From Sabellastarte sp. h YS-2021 (lineage: Eukaryota > Annelida > Polychaeta > Sabellida > Sabellidae), in the NCBI GenBank assembly GCA_964017235.1, contig OZ024928.1, forward strand, positions 83,695,566 through 83,759,565: DNA of 64,000 nucleotides, in the 5' to 3' direction. A program made the translations under genes and the position numbers. Within the stretch, counting starts at the first letter, position 1. Each line of letters opens with the position of its first letter. This document shows, piece after piece, positions 4,862 through 51,800 of this stretch. Under the pieces are notes generated by a model. That model worked only from the letters and a program-made list of their open reading frames with translations. It did no database searches and was not told where the DNA came from.

Positions 4862-5800
4862 GTAGTTTTAAAGGCGATATAAGGTAAAAAGAGGGGTTAA
4901 ACCTGACTGGCTATATAGACTCTCCATATATCGAATCCATTCTAAAGCTGTAAAAGCAATAATAAAGGAGATATAAGGCAAAACGAAAAAATCTGCTTTT
5001 TTTATGAGCCCAGTGTGAGCTATAAGGTGGAGTGGGGCAAGGAGTAAATCTGACTGGCTATGTAGACTGTACATGCTTTCCTATTCCCTCTCAAGACATT
5101 CTAAAGCTGTAAAAGCAATAATAATGAGATATAAGGCAAAAGAACCAAATCTTCTATTTTGTGACCCCAGTTTTACCCATAAGGGAGGGGGATTAGGGCG
5201 TAAATCTGACCAGCTGTATAAACTGCACATATGGTTTCCCAATTCCTCTTAATACATTCTAAATCTGTAAAAGCATTAATAAAAGAGATCTAAGGCAACA
5301 AACACAAAATTGGCTATTTTACGACCCCAGTTTGATCCATAAAGGAGGGTGAGGGGGTAAATTGGACAGGTATCTATTCTTCCATGAGGTTTCCCAATAC
5401 CTCTTAATACATTCTATAGCTCTGAAAGCAATAATAAAGGAGATATAAGGCAAAAACCCAAAATCGGCTATTTTATCACCCCAGTTTAACCCATGGGGGT
5501 GGGGGTGGGGGGGTAAATCTGACCGGCTATCTAGACTCTTCACATATGGTTTCCCAATACCTTTTAATACATTCTAAAGCTGTAAAAGATATAATAAAGG
5601 AGATATAAGGAAAAATGTCAAAATCGGCTATTTTATAACCCCCATTTTACCCCTACGGGAGAGTAGGGGGGGGGGGGGGGGGGAATTTGACTTGCTTTCT
5701 AGACTATCCACATATGGTTTCCTACTACCTCCCAATACATTTTACGACTCTAAATGCAATACTTAAGACGATAATATGGAGTTTCACATGAGTTTTAAGC
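4862..5800. repeat. Tandem repeat S1, about 159-bp monomer, six degenerate copies
   Basis: The landmark TCTAAAGCTGTAAAAGC recurs at 4941, 5100, 5258, 5413, 5573 and, weakly, about 5739, giving spacings of 155-166 bp. Each copy holds GCAATAATAAAGGAGATATA, a CCCCAGTTTTACCCATAAGG-like block and TCTGACTGGCTATNTAGACT. A pure G run of about 18 occurs at 5661-5681. Related single blocks appear at about 15950-16100 and 17905-17955. Confidence 0.85.
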
Positions 5801-5989
5801 TTTCTGGTTGGCAGCTGTGAAAACATCTCTCATAAATTGGTCAATTTTCATTAGATCACTCCCAAAATCTAATCAGCTTGCGTTTTTGATAGTGGCGGCA
5901 TGACGCACGTGACGTGAAACCAATACATCCCGACTATTGTCTGGGGATATAATAATTCCTAGAAGAATTGCAAACATTCTTATAGTTCC

Positions 5990-6022: not shown

Positions 6023-9000
6023 CTACAGATGAAAGAGACTGAAGAGGCAGTGAATTGCATATTTAAGTAATAATCTTATATTTAAAAGTAATACCTTTAT
6101 GTCTACATATTGCCCTGTATTCAAAGTAGTCCAGGAATCCTCTTCCATCAAAATGTATGATCTTGTAGCAATATTTGTGTGATTTGACTTGGCTAAAAAG
6201 TAGGTTTATTACATGTACATATTACAGATTCTTCTGAATTGTACATTACATTTTTATTCAGGTTGTTGCTTACTGATAAATTAAAGATCTGGACAATACA
6301 GAAGCTAATAGAAAATATTTGGAGTGCTATACTATGAAATTAACTTTTCAAAATATTTAAGATTGTGAAAAGAACTTTACACAATGTACATCATAATATC
6401 ATTGAATTGGATGAAACAACAAAAAGCTCTTTTTTTCTGGAACTTGTACCAAATACTCTGATCAGATCTCCACTTGTCCTATTAGCAAAAGGTGCCAATA
6501 TAAATTCTCGGCCCCAGGTACTGGCAGTTGGCACCTGCTCTACCATGTGGTCACCCATCAATTCAGACTTAACAGATGTCCAAACTGTGCCAGCAAAAAC
6601 TGCCACTGGTGCACTGGCTGTGATGTATGTACCAGTCAGATCATGGTTGCTTTGAAACTATAGTAAAAAGCAAATGCAGGAATCATGTGTGAGGGGATCA
6701 CCACACATACTTTAATTGAATTTATTTCTTTTATACATTTGAACAAATAAGTAAATATTTTTGTTGAGCTAAAGCTCCCATTTGGTAATTTTGGCATGAA
6801 ACCTAAAAACTCCATAATGACTACAATAATTATTTTCTTTCAAAGGTCATATTCTTCCAAGAAAAGTTTTGATAATAAAGAATGTTCATATGATATAATG
6901 TTACATGTTCAGAAGTATTTTTTATAGAATGTAAAATAGAGCCTCTGCAGATATTCAAACACTTACGCATGAAAATCTTCCAGTTTTACTAGAGAATACA
7001 TTTTATGTAACTTTATTGTTACTGATTGTGACTGAAATTGATACAAAAAAATGTGCCTCATATAATGTCACTCGGAAAGTTGAAACTGAAATACCTGAAG
7101 TGTTGAACACCAGTTCAATATCAGAGAACATTTATTTTTTTTACAGCCAAAATCTGCAATAGTTTTCAAGAATGACAGGCTATCGACTGCTGCGTCTGGT
7201 AGTGTGATATTGACAACAGTGTTATCCAGTGTCCCAAGCACAACTACCTCTGTGGGTCCCTAAATGCATATTAATATACAGTAAACCTCTATTATCTGAA
7301 AATGTTGGGAGAGTTTGATTTTTTTTTTTTTTTTTTTTTTTTGGGGGGGGGGGAATATCAAAATATCATTTATAAAATAGAAGCTTAAATAAGAAGATAA
7401 TATGAAACATTCCAAGTATATAAACTATAGAGAAATTCAACTTTGGGGCAGCATTAAAGAGTTATAATTGAATATTCAGATAAAAGATGGTTAGAGGATT
7501 GAAGTTCTGCCATACTACATTGCAAAAGTATAACCTAATCAACAGCAGATTATTCTGATAACTGAAGGTACTAATATTTTAAAATGCAATCTGTATTGTT
7601 AAGTTGAAACTGTAGAATATATGCAGAAGTTAAGGTCTCCACATATTCACTCACTTGCATAAAGACAGAGTTGTGTTTGTAGAGGTAGGTTACTACATAA
7701 TATTGGAGCCCTAAGGTATCTACAGGAAAAGCCATATAAGAATCTGAAGAGAGATCATTCATCTGGCCCACTTGAATATTGATAAAATCTGTTGATTCAA
7801 TGATCATACCTGAAATTTAAAAAGGAAATTATCTTAAGGATCACATGTTGTAGTTGGTATAAGCTAGAAATGCCACTGATATATGGTTTTTCTAGGATTA
7901 CTATGCATAAAATCCAGATATATACTGACAATACTGAAAACAAGAGGGTCAAAAATGCCAGAAAAGGCGGGTTGCGCAGACAGCAATAAGGTTAGTGACT
8001 GCTGTAATTAAATTTAGAAACAAGGAAAGAAATGTTAGGTCACCCAGTTAAGGTAAATGTGTTAGACATGCTAAGAAATGTAAAACTTGTAATCTAGGTT
8101 ACATAATTGTATGTATGCTATAAAAGGACAAACAAACGGACGGACTTACACCAATTTCAAAAGCAACTTAGCTATGATAGGGATCTATCTCGCTATCAAG
8201 TTCGAATTCGATTGGACAAAGCGTTTTTCGAGTTAGAGTCTGGAAACGGAAATGTTGATGGAGCAGGCAAACGAACCCTCAGAATTACCCCAATTTCAAA
8301 AGCAACTTAGCTATGATGGTTATCTATCTCCCTGTCAAGTTTGAATTCTATCGGACAAAGCATTTTCGAGCTAGAGTCCGGAAACGAAAATGTTGACGGA
8401 CAGATGTATGTCGGACACATCAATCTAATAGGCGGGTTCCGTGTAACGCAACCCACCTAAAAATACTTTAAAATGCAATATTTTTCAAGTTACAACTGAT
8501 TTATTCAACTGTGAGAACCTCATAATAGCTATTACACAGCTATGCCATGAGCTACAGATCTCCAATTTTACAACGTTATAACTAATTCAAAAGTAGATAA
8601 ATAGCATATTTAAACAAAACTAGAAATAGGCCGCCCTGTTGATAGTAGATGCGAATAGAAACAGGATAGCATAGAAGAACACACATTATCATGTGTAATG
8701 TCCACCCATGAACCTTTTGCCCAAATTGTACAGTAGTCTTACAAGACCCTGTTTCATTTGTAAAATATATCAATGATGCTTAAATATTTGTTAGTGTAGA
8801 TGTAAATTATTTCAGCTTCATGCCTTTTTGCATTGGTTGGGTTGAAAATTTTGACGAAATCACTCTATCTTGCACGGTTAAGAAGATAGAAGCAAATTCC
8901 TGTTTTTCTATTTTTGGCAAAAATTTGAAAATTCAAAATGGCCGCCATTTTTGGGAAAAGGAAATTTTTTTGAAAATTGCCAAGAGTACATTTCTTACGA

Positions 9001-12000
9001 AAATTTCAACGAAATAACTCTATTTTGCACGGTTAAGGCCAGTTTGTGTTTTTCCATTTTGGGCAAAAATTCGAAAATTCAAAATGGCTGCCATTTTTGG
9101 GGAGGGGAAAATTTTTTGAAAATTGCAAAGATTACATTCCTTAGATACCCTGTGGGTTGAAAATTTCGACGAAATCGCTCTATCTCGCATGGTTAAGGAG
9201 ATAGAAGCAAATTTGTGTTTTGCCATTTTTGGCAAAAATTCGAAAATTCAAAATGGCCGCCATTTTAGGGGAGGGGAAATTTTTTTTTAAATTGCCAAGA
9301 ATACAATGCTCAAATACCTGTGGGTCGAAAATTTTGACGAAATCACTCTATCTCGCATGGTTAAGGAGATAGAAGGAAATTCGAAAATTCAAAATGGCTG
9401 TCATTTTTGGGGAGGGGAAAATTTTTTGAAAATTGCAAAGATTGCATTCCTTAGATACCCTGTGGGTCGAAAATTTCGACGAAATCGCTCTATCTCGCAC
9501 GGTTAAGGAGATAGAAGCAAATTAGTGTTTTGCCATTTTTGGCAAAAATTCTAAAATTCAAAATGGCCGCCATTTTTGGGGAGGGGAAAATTTTTTAAAA
9601 ATTACCAAGAGTACAATGCTCAGATACCCTGTGGGTCGAAAATTTTGACGAAATCGCTCTATCTCACACGGTTAAGGAGATAGAAGCAAATTTGTGTTTT
9701 GCCATTTTTGGCAAAAATTCAAAAATTCAAAATGGCCGCCATATGTGGGGAGGGGAAAATTTTTTGAAAATTGCAAAGATTGCACTCCTCGGATACCCTG
9801 TGGGTCGAAAATTTCGACGAAATCGCTCTATCTCGCACGGTTAAGGAGATAGAAGCAAATTAGTGTTTTGCCATTTTTGGCAAAAATTCGAAAATTCAAA
9901 ATGGCCGCCATTTTTGGGGAGGGGAAAATTTTTTGAAAATTGCAAAGATTGCATTGCTTAGATACCCTGTGGATCAAAAATTTCGACGAAATCGCTCTAT
10001 CTCGCACGGTTAAGGAGATAGAAGCAAATTTGTGTTTTGCCATTTTTGGCAAAAATTCGAAAATTCAAAATGGCCGCCATTTTTGGGGAGGGGAAAATTT
10101 TTGGAAAATTGCAAAGGTTGCATTGGTTAGATACCCTGTGCGTCGAAAATTTCGCCGAAATCGCTCTATCTCACACGGTTAAGGAGATAGAAGCAAATTA
10201 GTGTTTTGCCATTTTTGGCAAAAATTCGAAAATGCAAAATGGCCGCCATTTTTGGGGAGGGGCAAATTTTTTGAAAATTGCAAAGATTGCATTGCTTAGA
10301 TACCCTGTGGGTCGAAAATTTCGACGAAATCGCTCTATCTCGCACGGTTAAGGAGATAGAAGCAAATTAGTGTTTTGCCATTTTTGGCAAAAATTCGAAA
10401 ATTCAAAATGGCCGCCATTTTTGGGGAGGGGAAAATTTTTTGAAAATTGCAAAGATTGCATTGCTTAGATACCCTGTGGGTCGAAAATTTTGACGAAATC
10501 GCTCTATCTCGCACGGTTAAGGAGATAGAAGCAAATTTGTGTTTTGCCATTTTTGGCAAAAATTCGAAAATTCAAAATGGCCGCCATTTTTGGGGAGGGG
10601 AAAATTTTTTGAAAATTGCAAAGATTGCATTGCTTAGATACCCTGTGCGTCGAAAATTTTGCCGAAATCGCTCTATCTCGCACGGTTAAGGAGATAGAAG
10701 CAAATTAGTGTTTTGCCATTTTTGGCAAAAATTCGAAAATTCAAAATGGCCGCCATTTTTGGGGCGGGGAAAATTTTTTAAAATTTACCAAGAGTACAAT
10801 GCTCAGATACCCTGTGGGTCGAAAATTTTGCTGAAATCGCTCTATCTCGCACGGTTAAGGAGATAGAAGCAAATTTGTGTTTTGCCATTTTTGGCAAAAA
10901 TTCGAAAATTCAAAATGGCCGCCATTTTTGGGGAGGGGAAAATTTTTTGAAAATTGCAAATATTACATTCCTTAGATACCCTGTGGGTCGAAAATTTCGA
11001 CGAAATCGCTCTATCTCGCACGGTTAAGGAGATAGAAGCAAATTTGTGTTTTGCCATTTTTGGCAAAAATTCGAAAATTCAAAATGGCCGCCATGTTTGG
11101 GGAGGGGAAAATTTTTTGAAAATTGCAAAGATTGCATTGCTTAGATCCCCTATGGATCGAAAATTTTGACGAAATCGCTCTATCTCGCACGGTTAAGGAG
11201 ATAGAAGCAAATTTGTGTTTTGCCATTTTTGGCAAAAATTCGAAAATTCAAAATGGCCGCCATTTTTGGGGAGGGGAAAATTTTTTGAAAATTGCAAAGA
11301 TTGCATTGCTTAGATACCCTGTGCGTCGAAAATTTTGCCGAAATCGCTCTATCTCGCACGGTTAAGGAGATAGAAGCAAATTAGTGTTTTGCCATTTTGG
11401 GCAAAAATTCGAAAATTCAAAATGGCCGCCATTTTTGGGGCGGGGAAAATTTTTTAAAATTTACCAAGAGTACAATGCTCAGATACCCTGTGGGTCGAAA
11501 ATTTTGACGAAATCGCTCTATCTCGCACAGTTAAGGAGATAGAAGCAAATTTGTGTTTTGCCATTTTTGGCAAAAATTCGAAAATTCAAAATGGCCGCCA
11601 TTTTTGGGGAGGGGAAAATTTTTTAAAAATTGCAAAGATTGCATTGGTTAGATACCCTGTGCGTCGAAAATTTCGCCGAAATCGCTCTATCTCGCACGGT
11701 TAAGGAGATAGAAGCAAATTAGTGTTTTGCCATTTTTGGCAAAAATTCGAAAATTCAAAATGGCCGCCATTTTTGGGGAGGGGAAAATTTTTTGAAAATT
11801 GCAAATATTACATTCCTTAAATACCCTGTGGGTCGAAAATTTCGACGAAATCGCTCTATCTCGCACGGTTAAGGAGATAGAAGCAAATTAGTGTTTTGCC
11901 ATTTTTGGCAAAAATTCGAAAATTCAAAATGGCCGCCATTTTTGGGGAGGGGAAAATTTTTTGAAAATTGCAAAGATTGCATTCCTTAGATACCCTGTGG

Positions 12001-15000
12001 GTCGAAAATTTCGACGAAATCGCTCATCTCGCACGGTTAAGGAGATAGAAGCAAATTTGTGTTTTGCCATTTTTGGCAAAAATTCGAAAATTCAAAATGG
12101 CCGCCATTTTTGGGGAGGGGAAAATTTTTTGAAAATTGCAAATATTACATTCCTTAGATACCCTGTGGGTCGAAAATTTTGACGAAATCGCTCTATCTCT
12201 TACGGTTTCTGAGATATTAGCAAATTACTCAAAAGTAGTACTGAAAATACACAATGAAGTACCTAAATGGCTATTACTCATGTACTGACAAAGCTATCAG
12301 TCCCAAATGCAATACCAAGCGAGCTATGGACATAACAATCTTGTATTCAAAATTGTAGTAAAATATCTTTAATTATTTTGGCTTAAATGCACGGAAACCA
12401 ATGGGTACTGAAAATAGCTGTACTTAAGTATTACTCAGTAAGCAAAAGAGGTACAACAGCCAAAAGCAATCCCAAGCAAGCTACTGACCCAATAAGCCTG
12501 CATACCAAATTTGGTGACAATAGCTCTAATACTTTTCCTTTAAATGAGCGGAAACCATGCGTGACGCCGGACATCGGACGCCGGACGCCGGACATCGGAC
12601 AACGGACATCGGACGGCGAAAAAAGCAAAAATAACATATCCACCCCCCAGGGGGGTGGACATAATTCTCTAAATGCAATAGTTTTCAAGTAACAGTGAGA
12701 ACCTGAAATTAGCTATTACTCAGCTATGCCATGACATACAGGTCTGCAAATTCACTGTTATAGCTGATCCAAAAGTAGGTGAACAACATATTTAAACAAA
12801 ACACTCTAAATGCAATAGTTTTCAAGTTACATCTAATTTACTCAACATTATAAAGACCGGAATTGCGCAGACCACACAAAACAATGCAGTGTGCATATTT
12901 TTGCGTACATTTATCTGAGGCAATAAATGGACAATCGCCGATAATAATGAACCAAACGATACACACAAAATATAGTGCGACAAATAGGTGTGTAAACAAC
13001 ATATTTACAATAATATTTATGGATTGATAAAAGAAACCGGTCTTTATAATAGAAATAAAGTCCTCAGGTTCATACTTTATGACCTTTTTAAAAGGACAAT
13101 ACTGTCTTATAGAGGTCATAAAGAACTCACCCTTGGACTTTATTTCTACAGTGAGAACCTGAAAGTTAGTAGCTATTGCTCAGCTATGCCATGAGCTACA
13201 GGTGTGTAAATTCACTTTGTTATAGCTGACCCAAAAGTAGGTGAACAACATATTTATAGAAAATACTTTAAATGCAATATTTTTCAAGTTACAACTGATT
13301 TACTCAACAGGTAGAATCTCACAATAGCTATTGCTCAGCTATCTCCAATTTTACAATGTTATAGCTAATTCAAAAGCAGATGAATAACATATTTCAACAG
13401 AATTCTCTAAATGCAACAGTTTTGGAGTAACAACTGATTCACTCAACAGAGAAAACCTCAAAGTAGCTATTGCTTAGCTATGTAATGAGCTACAGGTCTG
13501 CAACCTTAACAAGCTGACACAAAAGCATTTTTAAGTTAAGAGTCCAGAAACGGAAATGTCGACGGACAGAAAAACAGACAAACGAACAGACAAAATTACA
13601 CCAATTTCAAAGCAACTTAGCTATGATGGTGATCTATCTCCCTGTCAAGTTTGAATTCGATTGGACAAAGCGTTTTCGAGTTAGAGTCCGGAAATGGAAA
13701 TGTGGATGGACAGACAAAGGGACAAATGAACCCACAGAATTACACCAATTTCGAAAGGAACCTAGCTATGATGTTGATCTATCTCCCTGTCAAGTTTGAA
13801 TTTGATTGGACAAAGCGTTTTCGAGTTAGAGTCCGGAAACGAAAATGTGGACGGACAGACAGACACATCAATCTAATAGGCAAGTTGGTTACATGCAACC
13901 CGACCAATGATAAGACTGTACCTTGGGAAGAAATTTCATTGCCTTTACTCTGAACATTGCTGGAATATTCTTGCACAACTACTTCAAATGGGAGAATGGT
14001 GAAGGTCACTCCAGTAACCAAAGTAAGCTGTAAAGAAGTGTTTATTTGTTTAAATGGTAAAGAAAAATAATTGTTTAATGGTAAAATGTTATGGCAACAA
14101 CTTTCTGTGTAAATTTGAAAAGAACAAAAACTAAAATAACATCTGCTTTCATTTAAACACAAACAGCCAGCATATAAAATTCTGATTTATGATATTTGCC
14201 GAGGAGCAATCTTATGAGTGATGCATTTTTCATGTATGTCTAGTGAGGGATGTCTTATTTTTATTATACAACATTTTCTATAAATAATAAGTAACGTAAG
14301 TCCATATTTAAAGACATGATGCAAAAAAGCTATGATATATAGTTGTACCAGTGAATATAAAAATTTCAATGCAACAAAAACAAGTAGGTCTGAAAAAATA
14401 CCTTTATCATAATGTATAGAACATATTTGTAGCTTACATAATTGATGAAGTATGAATGAAAAAAATTGAAACACTAATATAGTAAGTGGTGGTGGGAATA
14501 CGAAAAAACTATTACCTAGTCTGTATGTACCTGTATATTGGTCAAGTACCCCATGTGGTGGATATAAACTGTTTCAAATATATTTGTAATTGCAGTGAAT
14601 CTGAATTAAACCTGGTTTTATGAGAAAAGTTGCTGTCTGGTATTTTATCCTAAAAAGATTCTGTTAGATCTTTACATTTAAATTTTCCATAAATTCTGTT
14701 GTTTTATTTTCGCAATCTATTTGCAAAAATGTTGTTGGGTTTCCATTGTATTCTTGCTGGGTCATAACAAAATGTTAAACATTGCTTGTCAAAAGATGTA
14801 CTTTAAACTCACATTATAGTCATATGGGATCTTCAGAGTAACAAATACAGGACTTCTTGACAATGAAGTCATATAAAGGCGAATGACTGGATACTCTGCA
14901 AGCACACGGTTTTCAGGAAAAGCAAGGTAAAACATCCTTCCACTATTGCTCAAACCTGGTTGACAAAAAAAGAATATACACCTGCACAGAATTGCACCAA

Positions 15001-15143: not shown

Positions 15144-16105
15144 ACTGTTTTACAAAGAAAACACTTGTAACCATTGCTCAATATTTTTGTAGAAATTCAA
15201 CATCACAATCCCATGTTACTCAGCCAAAAAGATTTCTAATCATGATACAAGTTATGTTGTCCACATCTATGTATTAAATTAATCCCCTATTTTCACAATA
15301 CACTTTATCGAAACTATCCAACAGCTTAACCACATATGTTTTGACTGTTTTAACGATTTTCCACAAGGAACACTTAATTATTGAATGAAATAGCCCTCAA
15401 TGGTGTCAAACATTTGATGCAAGTAATGGTCGAATGAGTGCATATTAAGAAGCAAGGGTGATGAATATTTCATAACTAATATTCTTTTGATTAATCTGCA
15501 ACTAGTTGAAAGCATGTTTGTGATTGAGCATCAGCACGCCATGATTTTTCCACATCTATTGCAAATTAAGAACATTAATTCTTTTACCACAAGTAACCTT
15601 TTAGTTTATTTTCTCTTCAATTTCTCTTTCAAGTTTCTAGCTTATATCCCGGCTATCACAAATATATTGTTGCATATATTTTCCCTTTTACAAGGGGTTC
15701 AACTTCTAGTTCATCAGGCTTTGTTCATCTATTCATAAAACAGAAATCACTTGGAGTTAGTTTTGCTTTCAATGCACCTAGTGTGGAGCAATCTGCCCAA
15801 TGATATTTGCCCATCCTCCTCTGTTGCCTCTTCCAGAAAGAAACTTAAATCTTGTCTCTTCTAAAAACATATCATAGTCCTTCATTTACCCAACATCTAT
15901 GTTTTGCTGACCTTTTTCCTCATCCCTGGATATTGAAATTTTAAAGGGGAACTCCATTCCTGTATGGCAAATCCACTCTGTTACAAAAAATCTGTCCAGC
16001 TTTCTAGACTCCCTGCATGTGGATTTTTATTTCCTTCCAACACATTCTTATCAAGCTCTAAAACCCATAATGATGAAGATACAAGCCAAAAATAAAACAG
16101 TCAAT
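15144..16105. other. Intergenic, upstream of the IgGFc-binding gene
   Basis: No recognisable coding region or clear promoter motif was found. At about 15940-16095 one diverged S1-like block (TCCAGCTTTCTAGACTCC, AATGATGAAGATACAAGCC) is present. Confidence 0.5.
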
Positions 16106-17906
16106 CAGTGCCCGTGAATGGGCCGGAGTTACAACTGATTTACTCAACAGAGAGAATCTCAAAGTAGCTTTTGCTCAGCTATCTCATGAACTACAGGTCT
16201 ACAATTTTACTATGTTATAGCTGACCCATAAGTAGATGAATAACATATTTTAATAAAACTCTCTAAATGCCACAGTTTTCGAGTTATAAGTGATTTACTC
16301 AGCAGTGAGAACCTCGAAGTAGCTATTGCTCCAATTTGCAATGAGCTACAGGTCTACAATTGTACTATGTTATATCTGACCCAGAAGTAGGTGAACAACA
16401 TATTTAAAGAAAATACTCTAAATGCAACAGTTTTCAAGTTACAACCAATTTATTGAACAGCAATACTCTGAAAGTAGCTATAGCTCAGTTATGTAATGAG
16501 CTATAGCTCTGTAATTTTACCATGTTATAGCTGACCCAAAAGTAGGTGAACAACATATTTAAACAAAATACTGCAAATGAAAAAGTTTTCAAGTTACATC
16601 TGATTTACTCAACAGTGACAACCAGAAAACAGCTCTTGCTTAGCTGTGTAATGAGCTACAGGTCTGCAATTTCACTATGTTATAGCTGACCAAAAATTAC
16701 ATCAATAACATATTAAAATAAAATACTCCAGATGCAATAGTTTTTGAGTTACAACTGATTTACTCAACAGTGATAACCTCCAAGTAGCTATTCCTAAGCT
16801 ATGCAATGAGCTATATGTCTGTAATTTCACTATGTTATAGCTGACCCAAAAGTAGGTGAACAACATATTTTAACAAAATACTGTAAATGCAATAGTTTTC
16901 AAGTTACAACTGATTTACTCAAGAGTGAAAACCTCAAAGTAGCTACTGCTCAACTATGCCATGAGCTACAGGTTTGCAATTTCACTATCTTATAGCTGAC
17001 CCAATGGGAGGTGAATAACATATTTTAACAAAATACTGTAAATGCAATATTTTTGAGTTACAACTGATTTACTCAACATTGGGAACCTGAAAATAGCTAT
17101 TGCTCAGCTATATAATGAACTACAGGTCTGCAATTTCACTATGTTACAGCTGACCAAAAATTAGGTGAATAACATATTTAAACAAAATACTCTAAATGCA
17201 ATAGTTTTCAAGTTACAACTGATTTACTCAACAGTGATAACCTGAAAGTAGCTATTACTCATCAATGCAATGAGCTACAGGTCTGAAATTTTACTATGTT
17301 TTAGCTGAGCCAAAAGTAGCTGAATAACATATTTATACAAAATTCTGTATATGCAATATTTTTCAAGTTATAGGTGATTTTACTCATTATGGAGGTACTC
17401 AAAAGTCAGAAAGTAGCTATTACTCACTTAGCTATTCGGATAGACACCCAAGTTACTGAAAAGTAGCTGAATAACATATTTTAACAAAATGCTCTATATG
17501 CAATACTTTTCAAGTTAGAAGTGATTTAGTGCATGATTTCATGAATCTTAATGCAATGAAAATTATTTAAAAAATTCATAAACAAAATAATTAAGAAAGA
17601 TCCAGGTCTAATAATCACACAAGATAATCTACTAGTGGCCTAGTACATATATGCAAGATATGAGAAAAATCTCTGCAATAGTCAGTGAGAAAATTGTGAT
17701 AAAGTGTTGAAATTTTCACACTTTGGGTGGGGGTACCTGACTTGTAATGGCTCTGGGGAACAGATGAACAAACAGATCTGCATGCCTTGAACAATTTTTC
17801 ATCCTCGATAGTTAAGGTATCTTTTTAAAAAAAAATAGCATGTCTCTGGGTCTTGTAGTTTAGGAGAAGTTGTTCACGTGGACAACGCCGCAGAGTGACG
17901 ACATAA
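16105..17906. mobile_element. Satellite-carrying element, copy C (S3 array plus conserved right end)
   Basis: The left edge has a decayed hairpin (AGTGCCCGTGAATGGGCC). It is followed by about nine S3 monomers of roughly 155 bp (16125-17545) with the core GCAATAGTTTTCAAGTTACA and AACTGATTTACTCAACAGTG. The right arm is shared with copies A and B: GCATGATTTCATGAATC, CTAGTACATATATGCAAGAT, GGTGGGGGTACC, GCATGCCTTGAACAATTTTT, and the end GCCGCAGAGTGACGACATAA. No protein is encoded, so it is a non-autonomous element. Confidence 0.75.
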
Positions 17907-18018
17907 AAATCTGTGATTTTACAACCCCAGTTTGACTTATGGGGGAGGCGGGGTGTGTTCCATCACTCCCAAAATCTAGTGAACTTGAGATATTTATATC
18001 ATTAATGTGCATGTAAAA

Positions 18019-39800: not shown

Positions 39801-42800
39801 AGGTCTGTAAATCCACTATGTTATAGCTGACTGAAAAGAGGTGAACATATTTAAACAAACTACTGTATTTGTAATAGTTTTCAAGTTACAATTGATTTAC
39901 TCAACAGTGACAATCTAAAATTAGCTGTTGTTCAGCTATGCTACGAGCTACAGGCCTGCAATTTTACTATGCTATAGCATGATAGCAGACCCTTAAGTAG
40001 ATACATAAAATATTTAAAGAAACTTCTCTAAATGCAAAAGTTTTCAAGGTATAAGTGATTTACTCAACACTGAAAACCTGAAAGTAGCTATTGCTCAGCT
40101 ATGCATTGAGCTACAGGTCTACAATTTTACTATGTTAGAGCTGACCCATATGTAGGTGAATAACATATTTAAACAAAATACTGTACATGCAATAGTTTTC
40201 ATGTTACAACTGATTTAATCAACAGTGATAACCTGAAAGCTATTGCTCAGCTATGCTATGAGCTACCGGTCTGCAATTTCAGTACATTATAGCTTACTAA
40301 AAAGTAAGTGAATAACATATTTTAAACAAAATACTGTAAAAGCAATAGTTTTTATGTTACAACTGATTTACTCAACAGTTACTTCAAACAAGCTATTGCT
40401 CAGCTATCAAATGAGCTACAGGTCTACAATTTCACCATGTTATAGCTGACCCAAAAGTTGGTAAATAACATATTTGAACAAAATATTGCAATAATTTTCA
40501 AGTTACAACTGATTTACTCAACAGTGAGAACATGACAGTGAGGTCTGAAATTTTACTGTGTTATAGCTGACCCATAAGTAGCTGAATAATGTATTTATAC
40601 AAAATTCTTTAACTGCAATAGTTTTCAAGTTACAAGTGATTTTACTCATTATGGAAGGTACTGAAAAGTCAGAAACTAGCTATTACTCACTTAGCTATTG
40701 GGATAGACTCCCAAGTTACTCACCATGTTGTAGCTACAGAAAAAGAAGTTGAATAACATTTTTTAACAAAATGCTCTAAATGCAATACTTTTCAAGTTAT
40801 AAGTAATTTATTGCATGATTTCATGAATTTTAATGCATTAAAGATTATTTTAAAAATTCATAAAAAAATACTTAAGACAGATCCAGACCTGACACTCACA
40901 CATGGTAATCTACTTGTGACCTAGTACATATATGCAAGATAAGAGAGAAATCTTTACAATTGTCAATGAGAAAATTGTGATAAAGTGTTGAAATTTTCAA
41001 ACTTTAGGTGGGGGTACCTCAATTCTAATGGTTCTAGCAAACAGATGAACAAACAGATCTGTGTGCCTTGAGCAATTTTTCATCCTTGATAGATAAGGTA
41101 TCTTTAAAAAACAAGAGGAGAGTGCCCGTGAACGGGCACTGTGTCAGCTGACTGAATGTTTTTGATTGTGATGGTGATAATGAGAGGAAAGCATAATTAT
41201 CAGGGAAAGGGCTGTACAGAAATACAGTAAATGTTAACTGAACAGCATGTTCGAAAGATATTCCGAAGCTGACAGAAGAAAAGGACAAAAAAGTTGTGCC
41301 CTGCAAATGGTATTATGAAATAAAGTAACAAGGTAATTGTTTAAGTGTAAAAAGTAGGTTAAAAATATTTAAAGAAATACTATAAATGCAATATCCTCGT
41401 TCGACCATGAAGAAGGGGTCCAAAGGTCAAATCTGACCATACCAAAAGATTCCCAGCCAAAGAATTTAGGATGGTTTACCATCCCAAACCTCTCGGACCA
41501 ATAATAAGTGAGTCATAGGCACTTTTTAAGTTTGGCTATCCTTGTTTGACCTTGAAGGAGGGGGTCCAAGGTCAAATCCGACCACACAAAAAAATTCCCA
41601 GCCCATGATTTCCTGTAGCTTGTTTACCATCCCAAACTTGTAGGACCAATAATAAGCGAGTTCTAAGCAATTGTAAGTTTGGCTATCCTCAATTGACCTT
41701 GAAGCAGGGGTCCCAGGTCAAATCTGACCACACCAAAAGAATCCCAGCCCATGATTTCCTATATGTTGGTTTACCATGCCAAACCTCCAAGACCAATAAT
41801 ACGCGAGTTATAAGCACTTTAAGTTTGGCTATCTTCGTTTGACCTGGAAGGAGGGGTCTAAGGTCAAATCCGACTACACCAAAAGATTCCCAGCCCATGA
41901 TTTTCTATAGGTTGGTTTTCCATTCGAAACCTCTAGGACCAATAATAAGTGAGTTATAAGCACTTTTAAGTTTGGCTATCCTCATTTGACCTTGAAGGAG
42001 GGGTCCAAGGTGAAATCCGACCACAACAAAAAATTCCCAGCTCATGATTTTCTATAGGTTGGTTTTCATTCCAACCTCTAGGACCAATAATAAGCGAGTT
42101 ATAAGCACTTTTATGTTTGGCTATCCTCATTTGACCTTGAAGGAGGGTTCCAAGGTCAAATCGGACCATATTAATAGATTCCCAGCCCATGATTTCCTAC
42201 AGGTTGGATACAATGATTTACTCAACAGTGAGAACCTGAAAGAAGCTATTGCTCAGCTATGCCATGACATAGAGGTCTGCAATTTCACTATGTTATAGCT
42301 GACCAAAAATTATGTGAATAACATATTTAAACAAAATACTCTAAATGTAATAATTTTCAAGTTACAACTGATTTACTCAAGAGTGAGAACCTCAAAGTAA
42401 CTATTACTCAGCTATGCAATGAGCTACATGTCTGAATTTTTGCACTGTTATAGCTGACCTAAAAGTAGGTGAACAACATATTTAAGCAAAATACTGTAAA
42501 TGCAATAGTTTTCAAGTTACAACTGATTTACTCAATAGTGAGAACCTGAAAATAGCTATTGCTCCACTATGCCATGAGCTATAGGTCTGTAATTTCACTA
42601 TGTTATAGCTAACCCCAAAGTAGGTGAACAATATATTTTAACAAAATACTCCAAATGCAATATTTTTCAAGTTATAGCTGATTTACTCAACAGTCAGTGC
42701 CTGAGAATAGCTATTGCTCAGTTGTGCCATGAGCTACAGGTCTGTAATTTCACTATGTTATAGCTGACCCAAAAGTAGCTGAATAACATATTTGCACAAA

Positions 42801-45800
42801 TTTCTGTAAAGGCAATAGTTTTCCAATTACAACTGATTTACTCAACAGTGAAAACTTCAAAGTAGCTATTACTCAGCTATGCAATGAGCCACAGGTCTGG
42901 AACTTCACTATGTTATAGCTGACCCCAAAATAGGTGAATAACATATTGCAACAAAATACTCTAAATGCAATAGTTTTCAAGTTATAAGTGACTTACTCAA
43001 CAGTGATAACCTAAAAGTAGCTATTACTCAGCTATGCCATGAGCTACAGGTCTGAAATTTTACTATGTTATAGCTGACCCAAAAGTAGCTGAATAACATA
43101 TTTATACTAAATACTCTAAATGCAATAGTTTTCCAATTACAACTGATTTACTCAACAGTGAGAACTTCAAAGTAGCTATTACTCAGCTATGCAATGAGCC
43201 ACAGGTCTGGAACTTCACTATGTTATAGCTGACCCCAAAATAGGTGAATAACATATTGAAACAAAATACTCTAAATGCAATAATTTCCAAGTTATAAGCG
43301 ATTTACTCAACAGTGATAACCTAAAAGTAGCTATTACTCAGCTATGCCATGAGCTACAGGTCTGAAATTTTACTATGTTATAGCTGACCCAAAAGTAGGT
43401 GAACAACATATTTAAGCAAAATACTGTAAATGCAATAGTTTTCAAGTTACAACTGATTTACTCAATAGTGATGACCTAAAAGTAGCTATTACTCAGCTAT
43501 GCCATGAGCTACAGGTCTGAAATTTTACTATGTTATAGCTGACCCAAAAGTAGCTGAATAACATATTTATACTAAATTCTCTAAATGCAATAGTTTTGCA
43601 ATTACAACTGATTTACTCAATAGTGAGAACCTAAAAGTAGTTATTACTCAGCTATGCAATGAGCTACAGGTCTGAAATTTTACTATGTTATAGCTGACCC
43701 AAAAGTAGGTGAACAACATATTTAAGCAAAATACTGTAAATGCAATAGTTTTCAAGTTACAACTGATTTACTCAATAGTGATGACCTAAAAGTAGCTATT
43801 ACTCAGCTATGCCATGAGCTACAGGTCTGAAATTTTACTATGTTATAGCTGACCCAAAAGTAGCTGAATAACATATTTATACTAAATTCTCTAAATGCAA
43901 TAGTTTTGCAATTACAACTGATTTACTCAATAGTGAGAACCTCAAAGTAGTTATTACTCAGCTATGCAATGAGCTACAGGTCTGAAATTTTACTATGTTA
44001 TAGCTGACCCAAAAGTAGGTGAACAACATATTTAAGCAAAATACTGTAAATGCAATAGTTTTCAAGTTACAACTGATTTACTCAATAGTGATGACGGGGG
44101 CCACGGTGGCAGAGTGGTAACACTCTCGCCTCCCACCTCTGAGGTCGGGGGTTCGATCCCCGTGACGGCCTTAAGTGGGAAAGCTGGTAGTTGCTTGCCG
44201 TTGGTCGGCAGTTTACAGTACACAACCCTAGCGAACTCTATGTACTGGTTTCCTCTGCCCTTCCAACTACCCGTCGTGATATGACCTGTACAGTGTTGAA
44301 AGCGACGTAAAACCCCAAATAAACAAATCAATAGTGATGACCTAAAAGTAGCTATTACTCAGCTATGCCATGAGCTACAGGTCTGAAATTTTACTATGTT
44401 ATAGCTGACCCAAAAGTAGCTGAATAACATATTTATACGAAATTCTCTAAATGCAATAGTTTTCCAATTACAACCGATTTACTCAATAGTGAGAACTTCA
44501 AAGTAGTTATTACTCAGCTATGCAATGAGCCACAGATCTGAAACTTCACTATGTTATAGCTGATCCCAAAATAGGTGAATAACATATTCAAACAAAATAC
44601 TCTAAATGCAATAGTTTCCAAGTTATAAGCGATTTACTCAACAGTGATAACCTAAAAGTAGCTATTACTCAGCTATGCCATGAGCTACAGGTCTGAAATT
44701 TTACTATGTTATAGCTGACCCAAAAGTAGCTGAATAACATATTTATACGAAATTCTCTAAATGCAATAGTTTTCCAATTACAACCGATTTACTCAATAGT
44801 GAGAACTTCAAAGTAGCTATTACTCAGCTATGCAATGAGCCACAGATCTGAAACTTCACTATGTTATAGCTGATCCCAAAATAGGTGAACAACATATTCA
44901 AACAAAATACTCTAAATGCAATAGTTTCCAAGTTATAAGCGATTTACTCAACAGTGATAACCTAAAAGTAGCTATTACTCAGCTATGCCATGAGCTACAG
45001 GTCTGAAATTTTACTATGTTACAGCTGACCCAAAAGTAGCTGAATAACATATTTATACGAAATTCTCTAAATGCAATAGTTTTGAAGTTATAAGCGATTT
45101 ACTCAACAGTGATAACCTAAAAGTAGCTATTACTCAGCTATGCCATGAGCTACAGGTCTAAAATTTTACTATGTTATAGCTGACCCAAAAGTAGCTGAAT
45201 AACATATTTATACGAAATTCTCTAAATGCAATAGTTTTTAAGTTACAAGTGATTCTACTCATGATGGAAGTTACTGAAAAGCCCAAAAGTAGCTATTACT
45301 CACTTAGCTATTGAGACAGGCACCCAACTTACTCACCATATTGTAGCTATGAAAAAAGTAGCTGAATAACATATTTTAACAAAATGCTCTAGATGCAACA
45401 GTTTTCAAGTTATAAATGATTTTGTGCATGATTTCATGAATTTCAATGCATTAAAAATTATTAAAAAAAATTTATTAAAAAAAAAGTAAGACAGATCCAG
45501 GTCTCATACTCACACAAGAGAATCTACCTCTGGCCTAGTACATATATGCAAGATATGAGAGAAATCCCTGCAATAGTCACTGAGAAAATTGTGATTAAGT
45601 GTTGAAATTTTCACACTTTTGGTGGGGGTACCCCCCTTGTAATGTCTCTAGCAAACAGACGAACAGACAGATTTGCATGCCTTGAACAATTTTTCATCCT
45701 CGATAGATAAGGTATCTTTTAAAAAAAACAGCACGTCTCTAGGCCTTGTAGTTTTGGAGGAGAAGTTGTTCACGCGGACGCGCCGCAGAGTGACGACATA

Positions 45801-48800
45801 ATGTCAGCTGACTGACAAGTCAGCTGACATAAAAAGCATGTACTCGAAATGCCGATTTGGCTTATTACTGTTTTCTTTCTCATGCTCCACAACGATACAA
45901 TAAGTAGGCGTATTTCATAGTGGGTGGACGATTAGACGTTGGGTCAATTATTCGTCGGCAGTACAGTAAAATTGGGATCGGTCGGCACTTGCCTTACATA
46001 ATCGAACATTAGACACTTCATTAAACACTACACAGAAAAGCAATAAATTTGTCCATTTATTTTATATTCAGCACATAATACTTGCTAATTTTCCAAATAA
46101 AGCACCTAGATTCTTGTGTACTTATTTCCTTTTCAAGTTGTGACGTAAACAAAGGGAGCGTGTCATTATTTCATGACGTTAAAGTAGGCGTCAAACTTAT
46201 TTATTTTTAGCTAGTTCAGCACATGGTTTATGTCTTTTGTTCTGGAAATAAGTAAAACAGTTTAAGATGGCAGAAAATAAACAAATTGTGAATTTCCCAG
46301 GATTAGCCAAATCTCTTGTGTGGAATTTCTTTGGGTTTTACGAAGTAGACAGAAAAGTCATGAAGGAGAAGGCTGTTTGTAAACTTTGCTTCAAGGAATA
46401 TGCCTACAAAGGTTTGTTCTATTTTTCTGTCTTGTGTGAACTGCCTACTACATGGTCATTTGTAAAAATATCAATGCTAAATAAAATTTTTGAAAGCAAT
46501 GTTGAATTGTTATTTATTCCAAAAGTGGCCTAGCTGGGTAGAAGGTTTAGCATCTAATCACAGTCTGTCACCCCCACTTTGACTTTATTAGTGAAAACAG
46601 AAAACACTTTGATCGTAGCTAAATTAATTTAAATTAAAGTATTTCCTTATTATTTTTGGAGTTTTAGTGGTAGCTTTACTTTTTCAGGGAATACAACAAA
46701 CCTTCTGACACATTTGAAGTCTGATCACAAATCTGAGTATCGCCAAAAGGTAGGAGCTGATTCTGTGGAATCAACAGTACAACAGAGACCTATTACTTCA
46801 ATGTTTGCGAGTCCCAGGAGTTCTCCTTTAACTGCTGTTAGGAAAAGCCAAATTGACACAGCAATAGAAAGCTACATTATAGATGCTTTGAAGCCCCTTG
46901 GTACCGTTGAGCAACCTTCCTTCATCCAGCTGATTAAAGTGTTAGAGCCAAGATACCAGATGCCAGCCAGGAAAACAATTCTGTCTCATTTCAATAAATC
47001 TTATAACTGTCTTGTTGCAGATTTAAAGTCAGAACTTTCAGATTCCCCAAATACTGCATTTACACACGATATCTGGTCATCTCTGAACACCCAGAGTTAT
47101 GGCACAGTTACTGTTCATTTTGTATCAAAACAGTGGGCTCTATCCTCTAAAGTGCTCGAAACCAAACTTTTCCCAGGAAGCCATACTGCTGAAGCCATTT
47201 CAAAGTCCTTAAAAGACACACTAGTGCAGGAATGGGGGCTCAAAATAGAAAATTTGATTGGGGTAACAGACAATGCAGCCAATGAAAAGCGAGCATTTGA
47301 TATCCTTAACTGTTCAAGATTATCTTGCATGGGGCACAATATAAATCTGTCTGTGAAAGCAGATTTAGGGGTTTCTGAAATTGACAGGCTTGTTGGGAAG
47401 GGGAGATCATTGGTATCTTACTTTCACAAAAGTCCATTGGCCATGGATGTCCTTCTTAAAAAGCAGATGTTGATGTTGCCTAGAGAAGCACAGGGGCACA
47501 AGCTTATCCAGGATGTAGCCACTAGGTGGAAGAGCACCCTGGATATGCTTCAGCGCCTGAGTGAACAAACTGCTGCTATGAGTATCCATGCAACAATCAG
47601 TGATCCTTCTCTGGTTAAAGTAAAAAATGACCTTGCCTCAAAATTGTTCACATATGATGACCAAAGGGTTGTGGACCAAATGATCCAGTTGTTGAAGCCT
47701 TTTAAAAATGCTACAGAAACTCTTCAGAAAAAATTCCCACTACACCCTTCATTTTGCCAACACTGATTAAACTGAATATGTTTCTTGAGCATAAACCTGA
47801 TGATATCGCATGTGTTAAAAAAATGAAAGCAGAAATGTCCAAAAATTTGGCAAAAAGACTGCCCAGTGAGGAACGTGAGATTTGTATGCTAAGTTCACTT
47901 TTGCATCCAAAGACTAAGCAGCTAGGTTTTTTGGATGCTGCTGAAAAAGAAACTGCCAAATTTCTTCTTTCTTCAACTGCCAAAAATTCCCATTCTGACT
48001 CTGGTACAAGTGGCATAAAGACTGAACCTGAGGTGCTCAGCACTTCTACCAATCAGGTCCCCACCCCCTCTGTTGATAATTTCACTATTAAGAGGGAAGT
48101 TGAAGTTGAGGAGTTGGAAAGGGAAATATTTGTTGGGCCTAAGGCAAAAAAAATCTGTACTACTGATCATAGTCAGGCTTGGTTAGATGATATCATATGT
48201 GTAGCAAATGATTCCGTTGAAACTGGTACATTGATAGACCAGGAGATCCAACGCTATTTGGCTGAACCACTAGGCACAAACCAATGTGCCCTGACTTGGT
48301 GGAAAGAGAGGGAAGCCAGTTACCCCATTTTGTCCAAGTTAGCCAAGAAATACTTGGCAATACCTGCTACCAGTGTGCCATCAGAGCGCATATTTAGCTT
48401 GGCAGGTAATCTTGTGACCAAAAAAAGGGCTCTTTTGTCACCTGAAACAGTGAATATCCTGATATTTTTGAATAAAAATAGGAAGTCTTAGTTTTGTACT
48501 AGTACTTGTTGGTCATGCTTTTAGTTTGATTTCACTTATGTCTGTATCTGTGAAGTAGTTGATTTTATTTGATGTTGATCATTTATCATTTGATGCTGAA
48601 CATTTGTTAATATAGTAAATTTTTTTTATTGACTCAGAGTCTCAGATTGATAATGTGGACTTGCAAGACTACTACTTGAATTTTAAAATGTGCTGACTCT
48701 CTAGTTAATTCTGTTTATATACAAGTGAAACATACAAAGTTTTGCATTTGAGAATACTGAAACAGTGTTAAATAAAGATTCTGTGTTGTACTTGACTACT

Positions 48801-51800
48801 ACTTGTGGCTTTTGCAATAATGTTACCTGCCTACCTTATTCCTTGAAATACTGTATGCTCTCTCACCTGGTGGTTACCTGATCAGATATCAAAACAAACA
48901 TGGTCGCCAGTACACACTGGTACTGCTACACAGATGATTTTGTTTTAATTTAAACACTAAACAGTGTAAATTAAAAGCACTACAGGATACAGTACATATT
49001 ATTATAAGGTAAGTACATGCTAATTAAAGTAGCATAATATTCGATTATGGCTCGATGCTCGGTCGTCATATGCAACGAACAATCGACGCACAATATATAC
49101 AGCGATTCCCAACACTACTATTTCTATTTCACAAACAAGAATCTACATAATCTGTGCAATCTAGATTTAGATTTGAATTCTTTGGATTAGCTAAAATCGT
49201 GAAATGCATTCTTCTTTAGATCAGAATCCATGGTGAAAAAAATAAGATAAACAATTTAACTATAAATATCATAAACAAGAAGAGAGTGCCCGTGAACGGG
49301 CACTGTGTCAGCTGACTGAGTGTTTTTGATTTGTGAAGGTGATAATGAGAGGAAAGCATAATTATCAGGGAAAGTGCTGTACAGAAGTACAGTAAATGGT
49401 AATTGAACAGCATGTTCGAAAGAAATTCCAAAGCTGACAGAAGAAAAGGACAAAAAAGTTGTTCCCTGCAATGGTATTATGAAGGAAAGTAACAAGGTAA
49501 CTGTTTAAGTGTAAAAAGTAGGTTAAAACATATTTAAAGAAATACTGCAAATGCAATATCCTCGTTCCACCTTGAAGAAGGGGTCCAAGGTTAAATCCAA
49601 CCCCACAAAAACATTCTGTGCCCATGATTTCCTATAGGTTGGTTTACCATTCCAAACCTCTAGGACCAATAATAAGTGAGTTATAAGCACTTTTAAGTTT
49701 GGTTGTCCTCATTTGACCTAGAAGGAGGGGTTCAAAGGTCAAATTTGACCACACCAAAAGAATCCCAGCCCATGATTTCCTATATGTTGGTTTACCATCC
49801 CAAACTTCTGGGACCATTAATAAGCGAGTTATAAGCACTTTTAAGTTTGGCTATCCTCGTTTGACCTTGAAGGCAGGGTCCAAGGTCAAATCCGACCACA
49901 CCCAAAGATTCCCAGCCCATGATTTCCCATAGGATGGTTTACCATCCCAAACCTCTAGGACCAATAATAAGCGAGTTATAGGCACTATTAAGTTTCGCTA
50001 TCCTTGTTTGACCTTGAAGGAGGAGTCCAAGGTCAAATCTGACCACACCAAAAGAATCCCAGCCCATGATTTCCTATATGTTGGTTTACCATCCCAAACT
50101 TCTAGGACCATTAATAAGTGAGTTATAAGCACTTTTAAGTTTGGCTATCCTCGTTTGACCTTGAAGGCAGGGTCCAAGGTCAAATCCGACCACACCAAAA
50201 GATTCGCAACCCATGATTTTCTATAGGTTGGTTTTCCATTCCAAACCTCTAGGACCAATATTAAGTGAGTTATAAGCACTTTTTAGTTTGGGTATCCTCA
50301 TTTGACCTTGAAGGAGGGGTCCAAGGTCAAATCAGACCACATCAACAGATTCCCAGCCCATGATTTCCTATATGTCTGTTTACCATCCCAAACCTCTAGG
50401 ACCAATAATAAGTGAGTTATAAGCACTTTTAAGTTTGGCTATCCTTGTTTGACCTTGAAGGAGGGGTCAAAGGTCAAATCTGACCACACCAAAAGATTCA
50501 CAGCCCATGATTTCCTACAGGTTGGTTTACCATCCCAAACCTCTAGGACCAATAATAAGGGAGATATAAGCACTTTTCATGACTGACAAAGAAACACCTG
50601 TGGCGGCCATCTTGTTTTTCAAAATGAGGCCAAAAATATTCCCAGGCAACATTTTATGGTTATTAATATATCCTGCAAACTTGAGAAGGCTAGCTATAAT
50701 ATTTTTTTTTTCGTTAGAGCGGTAATGGTGAAATCTCTCTACACACTGCGGCTATCCAGTGGATACAATGATTTACTCAACAGTGAGAACCTGAAAGTAG
50801 CTATTACTCAGCTATGCCATGACATACAGGTCTGCAATTTCACTATGTTATAGCTGACCAAAAATTACGTGAATAACATATTTAAACAAAATACTCTAAA
50901 TACAATAGTTTTCAAGTTACAACTGATTTACTCAATAGTGATAACCTCAAAGTAGCTATTACTCAGCTATGCAATGAGCTACATGTCTGAATTTTTACTA
51001 TGTTATAGCTGACCCAAAAGTAGGTGAACAACATATTTAAGCAAAATACTGTAAATGCAATAGTTTTCAAGTTACAACTGATTTACTCAATAGTGAGAAC
51101 CTGAAAATAGCTATTGCTCAGCTATGCCATGAGTTATAGGTCTGTAATTTCACTATGTTATAGCTGACCCAAAAGTAGCTGAATAACATATTTACACAAA
51201 TTTCTGTAAATGCAATAGTTTTCCAATTACAACTGATTTACTCAACAGTGAGAACTTCAAAGTAGCTATTACTCAGCTATGCAATGAGCCACAGGTCTGT
51301 AACTTCACTATGTTATAGCTGACCCCAAAATAGGTGAATAACATATTGAAAGAAAATACTCTAAATGCAATAGTTTTCAAGTTATAAGTGATTTACTCAA
51401 CAGTGATAACCTAAAAGTAGCTTTTACTCAGCTATGCCATGAGCTACAGGTCTGAAATTTTACTATGTTATAGCTGACCCAAAAGTAGCTGAATAACATA
51501 TTTATACGAAATTCTCTAAATGCAATAGTTTTCAAGTTACAAATGATTTTACTCATGATGGAAGTTACTGAAAAGCCCAAAAGTAGCTATTACTCACTTA
51601 GCTATTGAGACAGACACCCAAGTTACTCACCATGTTGTAGCTCTGAAAAAAGTAGCTGAATAACATATTTTAACAAAATGCTCTAAATGCAACACTTTTC
51701 AAGTTATAAGTGATTTAGTGCATGATTTCATGAATTTTAATGCATTAAAAATTATTAAAAAAAATTATTAAAAAAAATAAGACAGATGCAGGTCTCACAC

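What the first reader, a model, noticed from the sequence alone, without database searches (positions are those of the whole stretch)
4862..51800. One short core shared by at least eight different satellite families
Aligned by eye, unrelated-looking monomers hold the same core at one place: S1 GCAATAATAAAGGAGATATA (4956), S7 TCAATAATAAGGGAGATATA (28926), S6 CCAATAATAAGCGAGTTATA (42084), S2' GCACGGTTTTCGAGATATAA (35624), S5 CTTACAGTTTCCGAGATATA (30597), S3 GCAATAGTTTTCAAGTTACA (42502), S4 GCAATACTTTTAGAGATAAT (33439), S9 AGCGTTTTCGAGTTAGAGTC (13669). The rest of each monomer and its length (134-169 bp) differ. A shared core across families carried by several elements suggests either deep common ancestry with selection on this box, or a site needed for array formation or element replication.
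Basis: partly seen in the sequence, partly recalled or inferred. Interest (0 to 1): 0.85.

Follow-up and report, generated by a model that had tools for sequence, protein, structure and literature searches.

The report
Shared core of Helentron tandem repeats
Several different-looking satellite repeat families in this animal genome carry the same short two-part sequence, which also sits near the start of the rolling-circle jumping genes (Helentrons) that carry them, so these satellites look like multiplied copies of the jumping gene's own front end.

Summary
All eight quoted cores are in the sequence, letter for letter. They are eight families but five superfamilies: A {S1,S6,S7}, B {S2'}, C {S3,S4}, D {S5}, E {S9}. 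For B-E the core is real: leave-group-out models find it at the right place. For A it is not distinguishable from chance.

The core is the first half of a two-block module, TATAWCTCGAAAAC - usually 18 nt - CAAAYTTGG. Between seven families the blocks are about 0.7 identical, sequence outside the module 0.23-0.34. Genome-wide one form of the two-block pattern occurs 7,796 times against 4 for the reversed control.

Most arrays lie in Helentron-type non-autonomous elements (HINEs) on the minus strand. Seven readable 5' ends have a module 63-111 nt in, three of them degenerate. The S9 family also forms the 5' region of an autonomous Helentron with Rep, PIF1 and a weak endonuclease match. Window element 7939-8464 shares both its ends.

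Within families the core is no better conserved than the rest. Best reading: the arrays are multiplied copies of the elements' own 5' subterminal segment; a Rep-recognition role is inferred, not shown.

The parts
7939..8464 (-). E1: HINE with S9-type units; first module about 84 nt from its 5' (right) end
   Evidence: Both ends align to the autonomous Helentron; 5' subTIR/IR palindrome; distance to core
8681..12661 (-). E2: HINE with S2 array (9043-12227) and further diverged units 12200-12570; GTCC-type microsatellite 12563-12614; 5' palindrome TGTCCACCCCCCTGGGGGGTGGA
   Evidence: the first module (degenerate, assigned by eye) is 111 nt from the 5' end; a look-alike family, L018_153, is supported
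13522..13905 (-). S9 array with its 5' end; core quoted at 13669
   Evidence: core 74 nt from 5' end
16104..17906 (-). E4: S3-type HINE
   Evidence: limits read by eye
26231..27441 (-). E5: 5' end AAGCGGCCCGTTAGGGACGCTT at 27441, S3-like core at 27032, S8 units 26231-26569; 3' end not located
   Evidence: core at 27032 p=0.002, S8 not supported (p=0.054)
28500..29130 (-). S7 array (superfamily A); core quoted at 28926; element ends not found
   Evidence: module membership not supported
4934..5673 (-). S1 array (superfamily A); core quoted at 4956; element ends not found
   Evidence: module membership not supported; exact core has 739 genome copies vs 0 for the reversed control
29313..31016 (-). 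E6: HINE with S5 array 29781-30918; 5' subTIR/IR TTACCCCACAGCCCTTAAGGGCTTTCGGGGTA at right, 3' subTIR plus palindrome GCATCAGAGATGC at left
   Evidence: module p=0.002, hit covers block 1
32513..36384 (-). E7: HINE with S2' units, S4 array 32985-35389, S2' array 35390-35996 and two single diverged modules (near 36120 and 36289); 5' palindrome TTAAGCGTCCCGCAAGGGACGCTT, 3' palindrome GTTTTTGCATAGCAAAAAC
   Evidence: modules E7a, E7b, S2', S4 p<=0.004
39384..41110 (-). E8: S3-type HINE without the 5' subTIR, uninterrupted S3 core at its 3' side
   Evidence: limits read by eye
41122..45831 (-). E9: HINE with S6 array inside the S3 array; S6 replaces the S3 core at its left edge; insertion 44094-44327 in the S3 array
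   Evidence: the S6/S3 edges and the 5'-end module were read by eye
49286..52085 (-). E10: sister of E9 (S6 + S3), 5' subTIR missing

Best explanation
Shown: the core of superfamilies B-E is block 1 of a two-block module (TATAWCTCGAAAAC, usually 18 nt, CAAAYTTGG; 20 or 24 nt in superfamily B) carried by HINEs, the non-autonomous partners of Helentrons. In four window elements a clear module sits 74-107 nt inside the 5' terminus, after the 5' palindrome and a short microsatellite-like stretch; in three more a degenerate one, placed by eye, sits at 63-111. It recurs once per unit in the tandem array, in one orientation to the element ends. In one family (S9) the same array is the 5' region of an autonomous Helentron. 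Inferred: each satellite family began as a tandem duplication of its own element's 5' subterminal segment (microsatellite + module + spacer). In source elements the module is kept because it acts in cis, most likely as part of the left end that the Rep/helicase recognises, so that the array works like a set of large iterons. The rest of each unit drifts, so families look unrelated apart from the module. Dispersed copies then decay neutrally.
For: Leave-group-out HMMs: 15 of 25 tested sequences p<=0.006, all on the element strand. Between-family identity 0.70 and 0.74 in the 10-nt bins of the two blocks against 0.23-0.34 outside the module, 0 of 2000 null draws. Block 2 in four families picked by block 1 only: 0.562 against null maximum 0.424, 0 of 10,000. 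Spacing 18: 32 of 67 pairs, reversed control 0 at 18 and 10 in all, over 323 kb. Whole genome: 7,796 against 4; a second pattern 116 against 2, with 94 of 100 listed at spacing 18 out of 31 allowed; a third 12 against 0. First module 63-111 nt from the 5' end in 7 of 7 readable window elements, 4 clear and 3 by eye. Two 98.5-99% identical autonomous copies with 6 and 7 S9-type units upstream of the Rep frame (2245 aa in the first copy; PF14214, PF05970, weak PF03372), same orientation. E1 shares both ends. An S5-type 5' end and array about 4 kb upstream of another Rep domain, same orientation.
Against: Superfamily A (S1, S6, S7) is not explained. The 5'-end modules of E2, E5 and E9 were assigned by eye, and E9's was not found by the HMM; three of the 15 HMM hits (S5, E5, L013_152) cover block 1 only. 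The core is not more conserved than the rest within families. Several families (E7b, L002, L008, L018_153, L013_156) were picked after I had seen that they fit. Nearly all places listed among the 7,796 come from one abundant family. The third pattern has spacings 18 (4), 14 (4), 24 (3) and 5 (1). The 17 block-1 hits in random DNA that were unlike known families showed, on average, no block 2 at the expected place. The 3' end of the second candidate autonomous element was not found. No element ends were found for S1 and S7. No binding or mobility data. No other species could be examined.
Confidence: 0.62

Rival explanations
1. The core is a site for array formation or exchange: recombination between elements happens at the core, so families come to share it by conversion rather than descent.
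For: In E9 and E10 the S6 array begins right after S3's AAATGCAATA and S3 resumes at GATACAATGATTTACTC, that is inside the S3 core, while E8 is uninterrupted. S2 passes into another unit at its core near 12199. Published bivalve BIV160/Cg170 junctions lie loosely near conserved motifs, without statistical support (PMC5139131, passages).
Against: One ancestral event for E9/E10. The S4/S2' junction at 35389/35390 lies about 76 nt from the core on either side. Block 2 is shared as well and the spacer between is less so, which conversion tracts would not give easily.
Confidence: 0.15
2. Common descent only: the module is a passenger inherited from one ancestral HINE, with no present function.
For: No extra conservation within families.
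Against: Everything outside the module has reached background identity while two blocks usually 18 nt apart remain at about 0.7; neutral decay should be even.
Confidence: 0.15
3. Chance likeness of short AT-rich strings picked by eye.
For: Blind motif search is weak; superfamily A fails; one control array reached p=0.041 in the first test.
Against: Leave-group-out tests, second block, spacing and reversed-pattern controls.
Confidence: 0.04
4. A CENP-B-box-like protein-binding motif of centromeric satellites.
For: Such motifs are claimed at satellite switch points in nematodes (cited in PMC5139131, passages). TTTTCG in some families recalls the box.
Against: Best match 5-7 of 9 essential bases in 11 of 11 consensuses, no better than shuffles (mean about 6; at least 30 of 200 reach it).
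Confidence: 0.02

Closest known systems
Cg_HINE elements of Crassostrea gigas (PMC7492417; passages, part 2 of 7 of the text, and the first part of the discussion read)
   Same: HINE ends, short satellite-like central arrays of mostly 140-180 bp units, fixed orientation of array to ends, two arrays in one element, two segments shared by some otherwise dissimilar clusters.
   Different: There the sharing reported is within group 1, group 3 elements are called unrelated in all modules, and autonomous partners could not be linked. Here the shared module spans superfamilies, matches the elements' own 5' ends, and one family is linked to an autonomous Helentron.
Drosophila DINE-1 (PMC2374699, passages)
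   Same: 5' subTIR and inverted repeat, GTCY microsatellite, a core of about 90 bp in block A held across 12 species and suggested to matter for transposition, central repeats, 3' hairpin.
   Different: Central repeats are said not to share homology among species. Whether the DINE-1 block letters match this module could not be tested; I recall a likeness from memory only.
BIV160/Cg170 satellites and Pearl elements (PMC5139131, passages)
   Same: About 160-bp units with two conserved motifs, carried partly in Helitron-type elements.
   Different: Their consensus letters were not held, so identity of the motifs is untested.
HINE-Mo / Helentron-Mo of a predatory mite (PMC4067079, passages)
   Same: Autonomous Rep/helicase/endonuclease element with deletion derivatives, like auto1/auto2 and E1 here.
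   Different: In the passages I read, some copies contain tandem repeats, but a tandemly repeated 5' module is not described.

Membership tests
HINE / Helentron | Subterminal inverted repeats with a 5' inverted repeat | tested here: met
   Read at both ends of E1, E2, E6, E7, E9; not found for S1 and S7, one-sided in E5, E8, E10
HINE / Helentron | Separate palindrome near the 3' end | tested here: met
   E2, E6, E7, E9, E10 by reading; E1 not clear
HINE / Helentron | Microsatellite in the 5' part, then central repeats | tested here: met
   E1, E2, E6, autonomous copies; short or only G/C-rich in E7, E5, E9
HINE / Helentron | Autonomous partner with Rep and PIF1 helicase sharing the ends | tested here: met
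   For the S9 family only: PF14214 90.1 bits, PF05970 96.6 bits; shared ends
HINE / Helentron | C-terminal endonuclease in the partner | tested here: inconclusive
   PF03372 at residues 2042-2238, E=2.3e-4, 21.4 bits, below the cut-off 24.5
HINE / Helentron | Insertion between Ts without target duplication | tested here: inconclusive
   T-rich flanks at E1 and the autonomous copies by eye; no empty site examined
DINE-1 | The conserved block A core letters | not testable with these tools
   Consensus is in a figure, not in the passages seen; searches of paper text for module letters, some recalled, found nothing relevant
BIV160/Cg170 satellite | The two conserved sequence segments | not testable with these tools
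   Consensus not in the passages seen; only a primer pair
CENP-B box | Nine essential bases NTTCGNNNNANNCGGGN (recalled) | tested here: not met
   5-7 of 9, no better than shuffles
Hammerhead retrozyme or other Rfam RNA | Rfam match at gathering score | tested here: not met
   0 matches in the window

The most novel reading that the evidence does not exclude
The two-block module is a general cis-acting left-end signal of Helentrons in animals, and the satellite-like central repeats of HINEs are tandem arrays of it. A large part of dispersed invertebrate satellite DNA would then be amplified transposon ends, in the manner of replication iterons, rather than captured filler. I recall (no call) similar letters next to GTCY microsatellites in Drosophila and Lepidoptera, which is a lead only.
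Probability: 0.3. Interest if true: 0.75.

Novelty: new variant of a known kind. Interest (0 to 1): 0.55.

Why it matters
Whether satellite-like repeats in HINEs are captured from outside or made from the element itself is open; the oyster authors set out both scenarios, cite insect work that favours filler DNA, and could not link their HINEs to autonomous Helentrons (PMC7492417, discussion). A shared module that is also at the elements' own 5' ends, and a family tied to an autonomous element, argues for the second origin and gives a defined 41-nt target for binding and mobility tests.

Tried and rejected
Blind motif search on five consensuses: four of five sequences met at the core in one of six settings only. 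Pattern scans for other organisms: viral contigs 3 scans (0; 1; 0), genome contigs 2 scans (0; 2). The 3 hits (L027, L040, L041) look like ordinary phage or bacterial sequence over the 0.2-0.8 kb that I read; TRF was run on L041 only and found no array. Paper-text searches for module letters: 7 papers, none relevant by title, 0, 0. Search for new families: of 126 block-1 hits in 180 kb of genome DNA, 109 resembled known families or the window; the mean block-2 score of the 17 others at the expected place ranked 36 of 100 offsets. CENP-B box and Rfam rejected. Superfamily A against others: of 12 tests the only one under 0.05 is S2' by TGCTTATATCTC, p=0.012 uncorrected. S5-type second autonomous element: 3' end not found in the 2 kb fetched. 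One search failed; one search's spacing count had a faulty pattern and is replaced, recounted. In one search the S2 and S2' rows share most of their copies and the S7 row holds S6 copies. The genome count of GTTTTCGAGWTATA did not complete.
Full report
What was checked. The eight strings are all in the window at the coordinates given. A PWM made from them (plus S2) gives 128 hits on + and 16 on - above 9 bits; the 105 of 12 bits or more are all on +. By alignment the eight families fall into five superfamilies: A {S1, S6, S7}, B {S2, S2'}, C {S3, S4}, D {S5}, E {S9} (A read by eye).

Is it more than chance? Blind motif search on one consensus per superfamily is poor: in 1 of 6 settings four of the five sequences met at the core, with 1 of 100 shuffles reaching the score; in the other five they did not meet there, one of these beating all 100 shuffles on another combination. 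The fairer test leaves a whole superfamily out, trains a PWM on the rest and scans it. The best hit then falls on the designated core for S2' (p=0.001), S3 (0.005), S5 (0.001), S9 (0.002) and the extra family L008 (0.001), and on the S2 core (0.002). S6 (0.42) and S7 (0.75) fail, S4 (0.16) and S1 (0.021) have their best hit elsewhere, and one control array, L023_292, reached 0.041. With a two-block HMM, 15 of 25 sequences tested have p<=0.006 (floor 0.002): S2', L013_152, S3, S4, E5, S5, S9, L036, L008, L002, E7a, E7b, L031, L018_153, L013_156. The hits of S5, E5 and L013_152 cover block 1 only. One more (L018_146, 0.014) hits elsewhere. The nine that fail are S1 (0.10), S6, S7, S2, S8 (0.054), the 5'-end module of E9, and the three arrays L014_97, L023_292 (0.22) and window 61312. 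The others were found by PWM, TRF or eye, and some after I had seen that they fit, so their p-values are not free of selection. Superfamily A stays unsupported after direct tests against C and others.

A second block. Anchored on block 1, seven families (S5, S9, L008, L002, E7a, E7b, L031) have mean pairwise identity 0.70 and 0.74 in the 10-nt bins of blocks 1 and 2, 0.38-0.51 in the four bins beside and between them, and 0.23-0.34 outside; 0 of 2000 random placements reach this. Block 2 alone, in families picked by block 1 only (S5, S9, E7a, L031), is 0.562 against a null maximum of 0.424, 0 of 10,000. In 323 kb of held DNA 67 block pairs are found; 32 stand 18 nt apart, 9 stand 24 apart (6 of them superfamily B) and 5 stand 20 apart (4 of them superfamily B); the reversed control has 10 pairs, none at 18 (several copies per family, eight families at 18). 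Over the whole genome (1.786 Gb) ACTCNAAAACN{5,35}CAAANTTGGNA occurs 7,796 times, reversed control 4; the listed places are nearly all of one family, the L031 type. With G in block 1, the count is 116 against 2, and of the 100 places listed 94 have spacing 18, 2 have 17 and one each has 16, 12, 8 and 34; the 19 letter strings shown have at least five different spacers by eye. A third form, ATCTCGAAAAC...SAAATTTGGNA, gives 12 against 0 with spacings 18 (4), 14 (4), 24 (3) and 5 (1), so 18 is the main spacing, not the only one.

What carries it. Read on the minus strand, the arrays (except S1 and S7, whose element ends I did not find) sit in elements with a 5' subterminal repeat and inverted repeat, a microsatellite-like stretch, tandem units, a 3' subterminal repeat and a 3' palindrome: E1, E2, E6, E7, E9 and relatives. 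This is the HINE plan described for Drosophila (PMC2374699, passages), mite (PMC4067079, passages) and oyster (PMC7492417, passages and two stretches of text). The first module lies 84, 74, 111, 107, 74, 68 and 63 nt from the 5' terminus in E1, the S9 element at 13905, E2, E6, E7, E5 and E9. Those of E2, E5 and E9 are degenerate and assigned by eye. The L031 element has the same plan, about 85 nt by eye, with further units at spacing 18.

An autonomous partner. PF14214 has 24 matches in this genome, none in 14 control genomes. Two loci, 98.5-99% alike over about 12 kb, hold a Rep frame; in the first copy it is open for 2245 aa with Helitron_like_N, PIF1 and, below cut-off, Exo_endo_phos. Upstream, in the same orientation, are GTCC microsatellite and six or seven S9-type units. 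E1 in the window matches its 5' region (about 72-77% in the longest alignments) and its 3' end (86-87%), that is, it looks like an internal-deletion form. Both copies carry the 5' end twice. An S5-type 5' end with array lies about 4 kb upstream of another Rep domain in the same orientation, but its 3' end was not found, so that link is open.

How common. In 18 ten-kb stretches at round-number positions (20 asked, 18 answered), by my count of the table, 22 arrays of period 90 or more lie in 10 stretches. Twenty belong to the families above (two of them to superfamily A) and two do not.

Constraint. Within families the core is not better conserved than other windows: ranks 80/120 (S3), 36/111 (S5), 102/134 (S2), 78/134 (S2'), 85/112 (S6), 48/98 (S4), 7/124 (S1, 10 copies), 33/110 (S9, 7 copies), 26/108 (S7); S1 alone ranks high, and the S2/S2' and S6/S7 sets overlap. 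Between families it is the only part left. I read this as neutral decay of dispersed copies with constraint on source elements. That is inference.

Mechanism proposed. The tandem units are duplications of microsatellite + module + spacer from the element's own 5' end. In S9 the microsatellite still stands between units. The module probably belongs to the left end recognised by Rep/helicase. No binding or mobility evidence exists here. Alternatives (exchange at the core, passive descent) are listed with their evidence; the S6 array inside the S3 core of E9 and E10 is the best case for exchange.

Novelty. HINEs with central repeats are known, and partial sharing of two segments among some oyster clusters is in print (PMC7492417). 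In seven library searches, and the passages that I read, I met no report that otherwise unrelated central repeats share a module with the elements' own 5' ends or with an autonomous Helentron. Most subscription papers are not in that library, and I saw most of the listed papers as titles and abstract openings only.

Noticed in passing
window 4934-52085: The ten HINE-type elements I read (E1, E2, the S9 element at 13905, E4-E10) and the S1 and S7 arrays all have the same orientation. If placements were independent this would be unlikely, but E8-E10 are close relatives and may be duplicates.
   Followed up: no
window 29781-30918, 41392-42207, 49557-50577: S5 and S6 units hold TCAAGGTCA / TGACCTTGA, which I recall as nuclear-receptor half-site words; 23 in the window against 0 for the reversed word.
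   Followed up: partly
L037 5684 and 6287; rc(L038+L039) 1358 and 2123: Both autonomous Helentron copies carry their 5' end twice, 0.6-0.8 kb apart.
   Followed up: no
window 44094-44327: An insertion that looks by eye like a tRNA-derived SINE, flanked by AATAGTGATGAC, splits the S3 array of E9; ARAGORN finds no tRNA in the window.
   Followed up: partly
window 427-4046; 23820-25043; 46714-48491: A reverse-transcriptase frame (PF00078) in what may be a DIRS-type element (recalled look, no domain call for the rest), a second RT frame below cut-off, and a hAT transposase C-terminus (PF05699).
   Followed up: partly
window 61312-63000; L014 2864-5690; L023 2052-3627: Arrays of 433, 97 and 292 bp without the module.
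   Followed up: no
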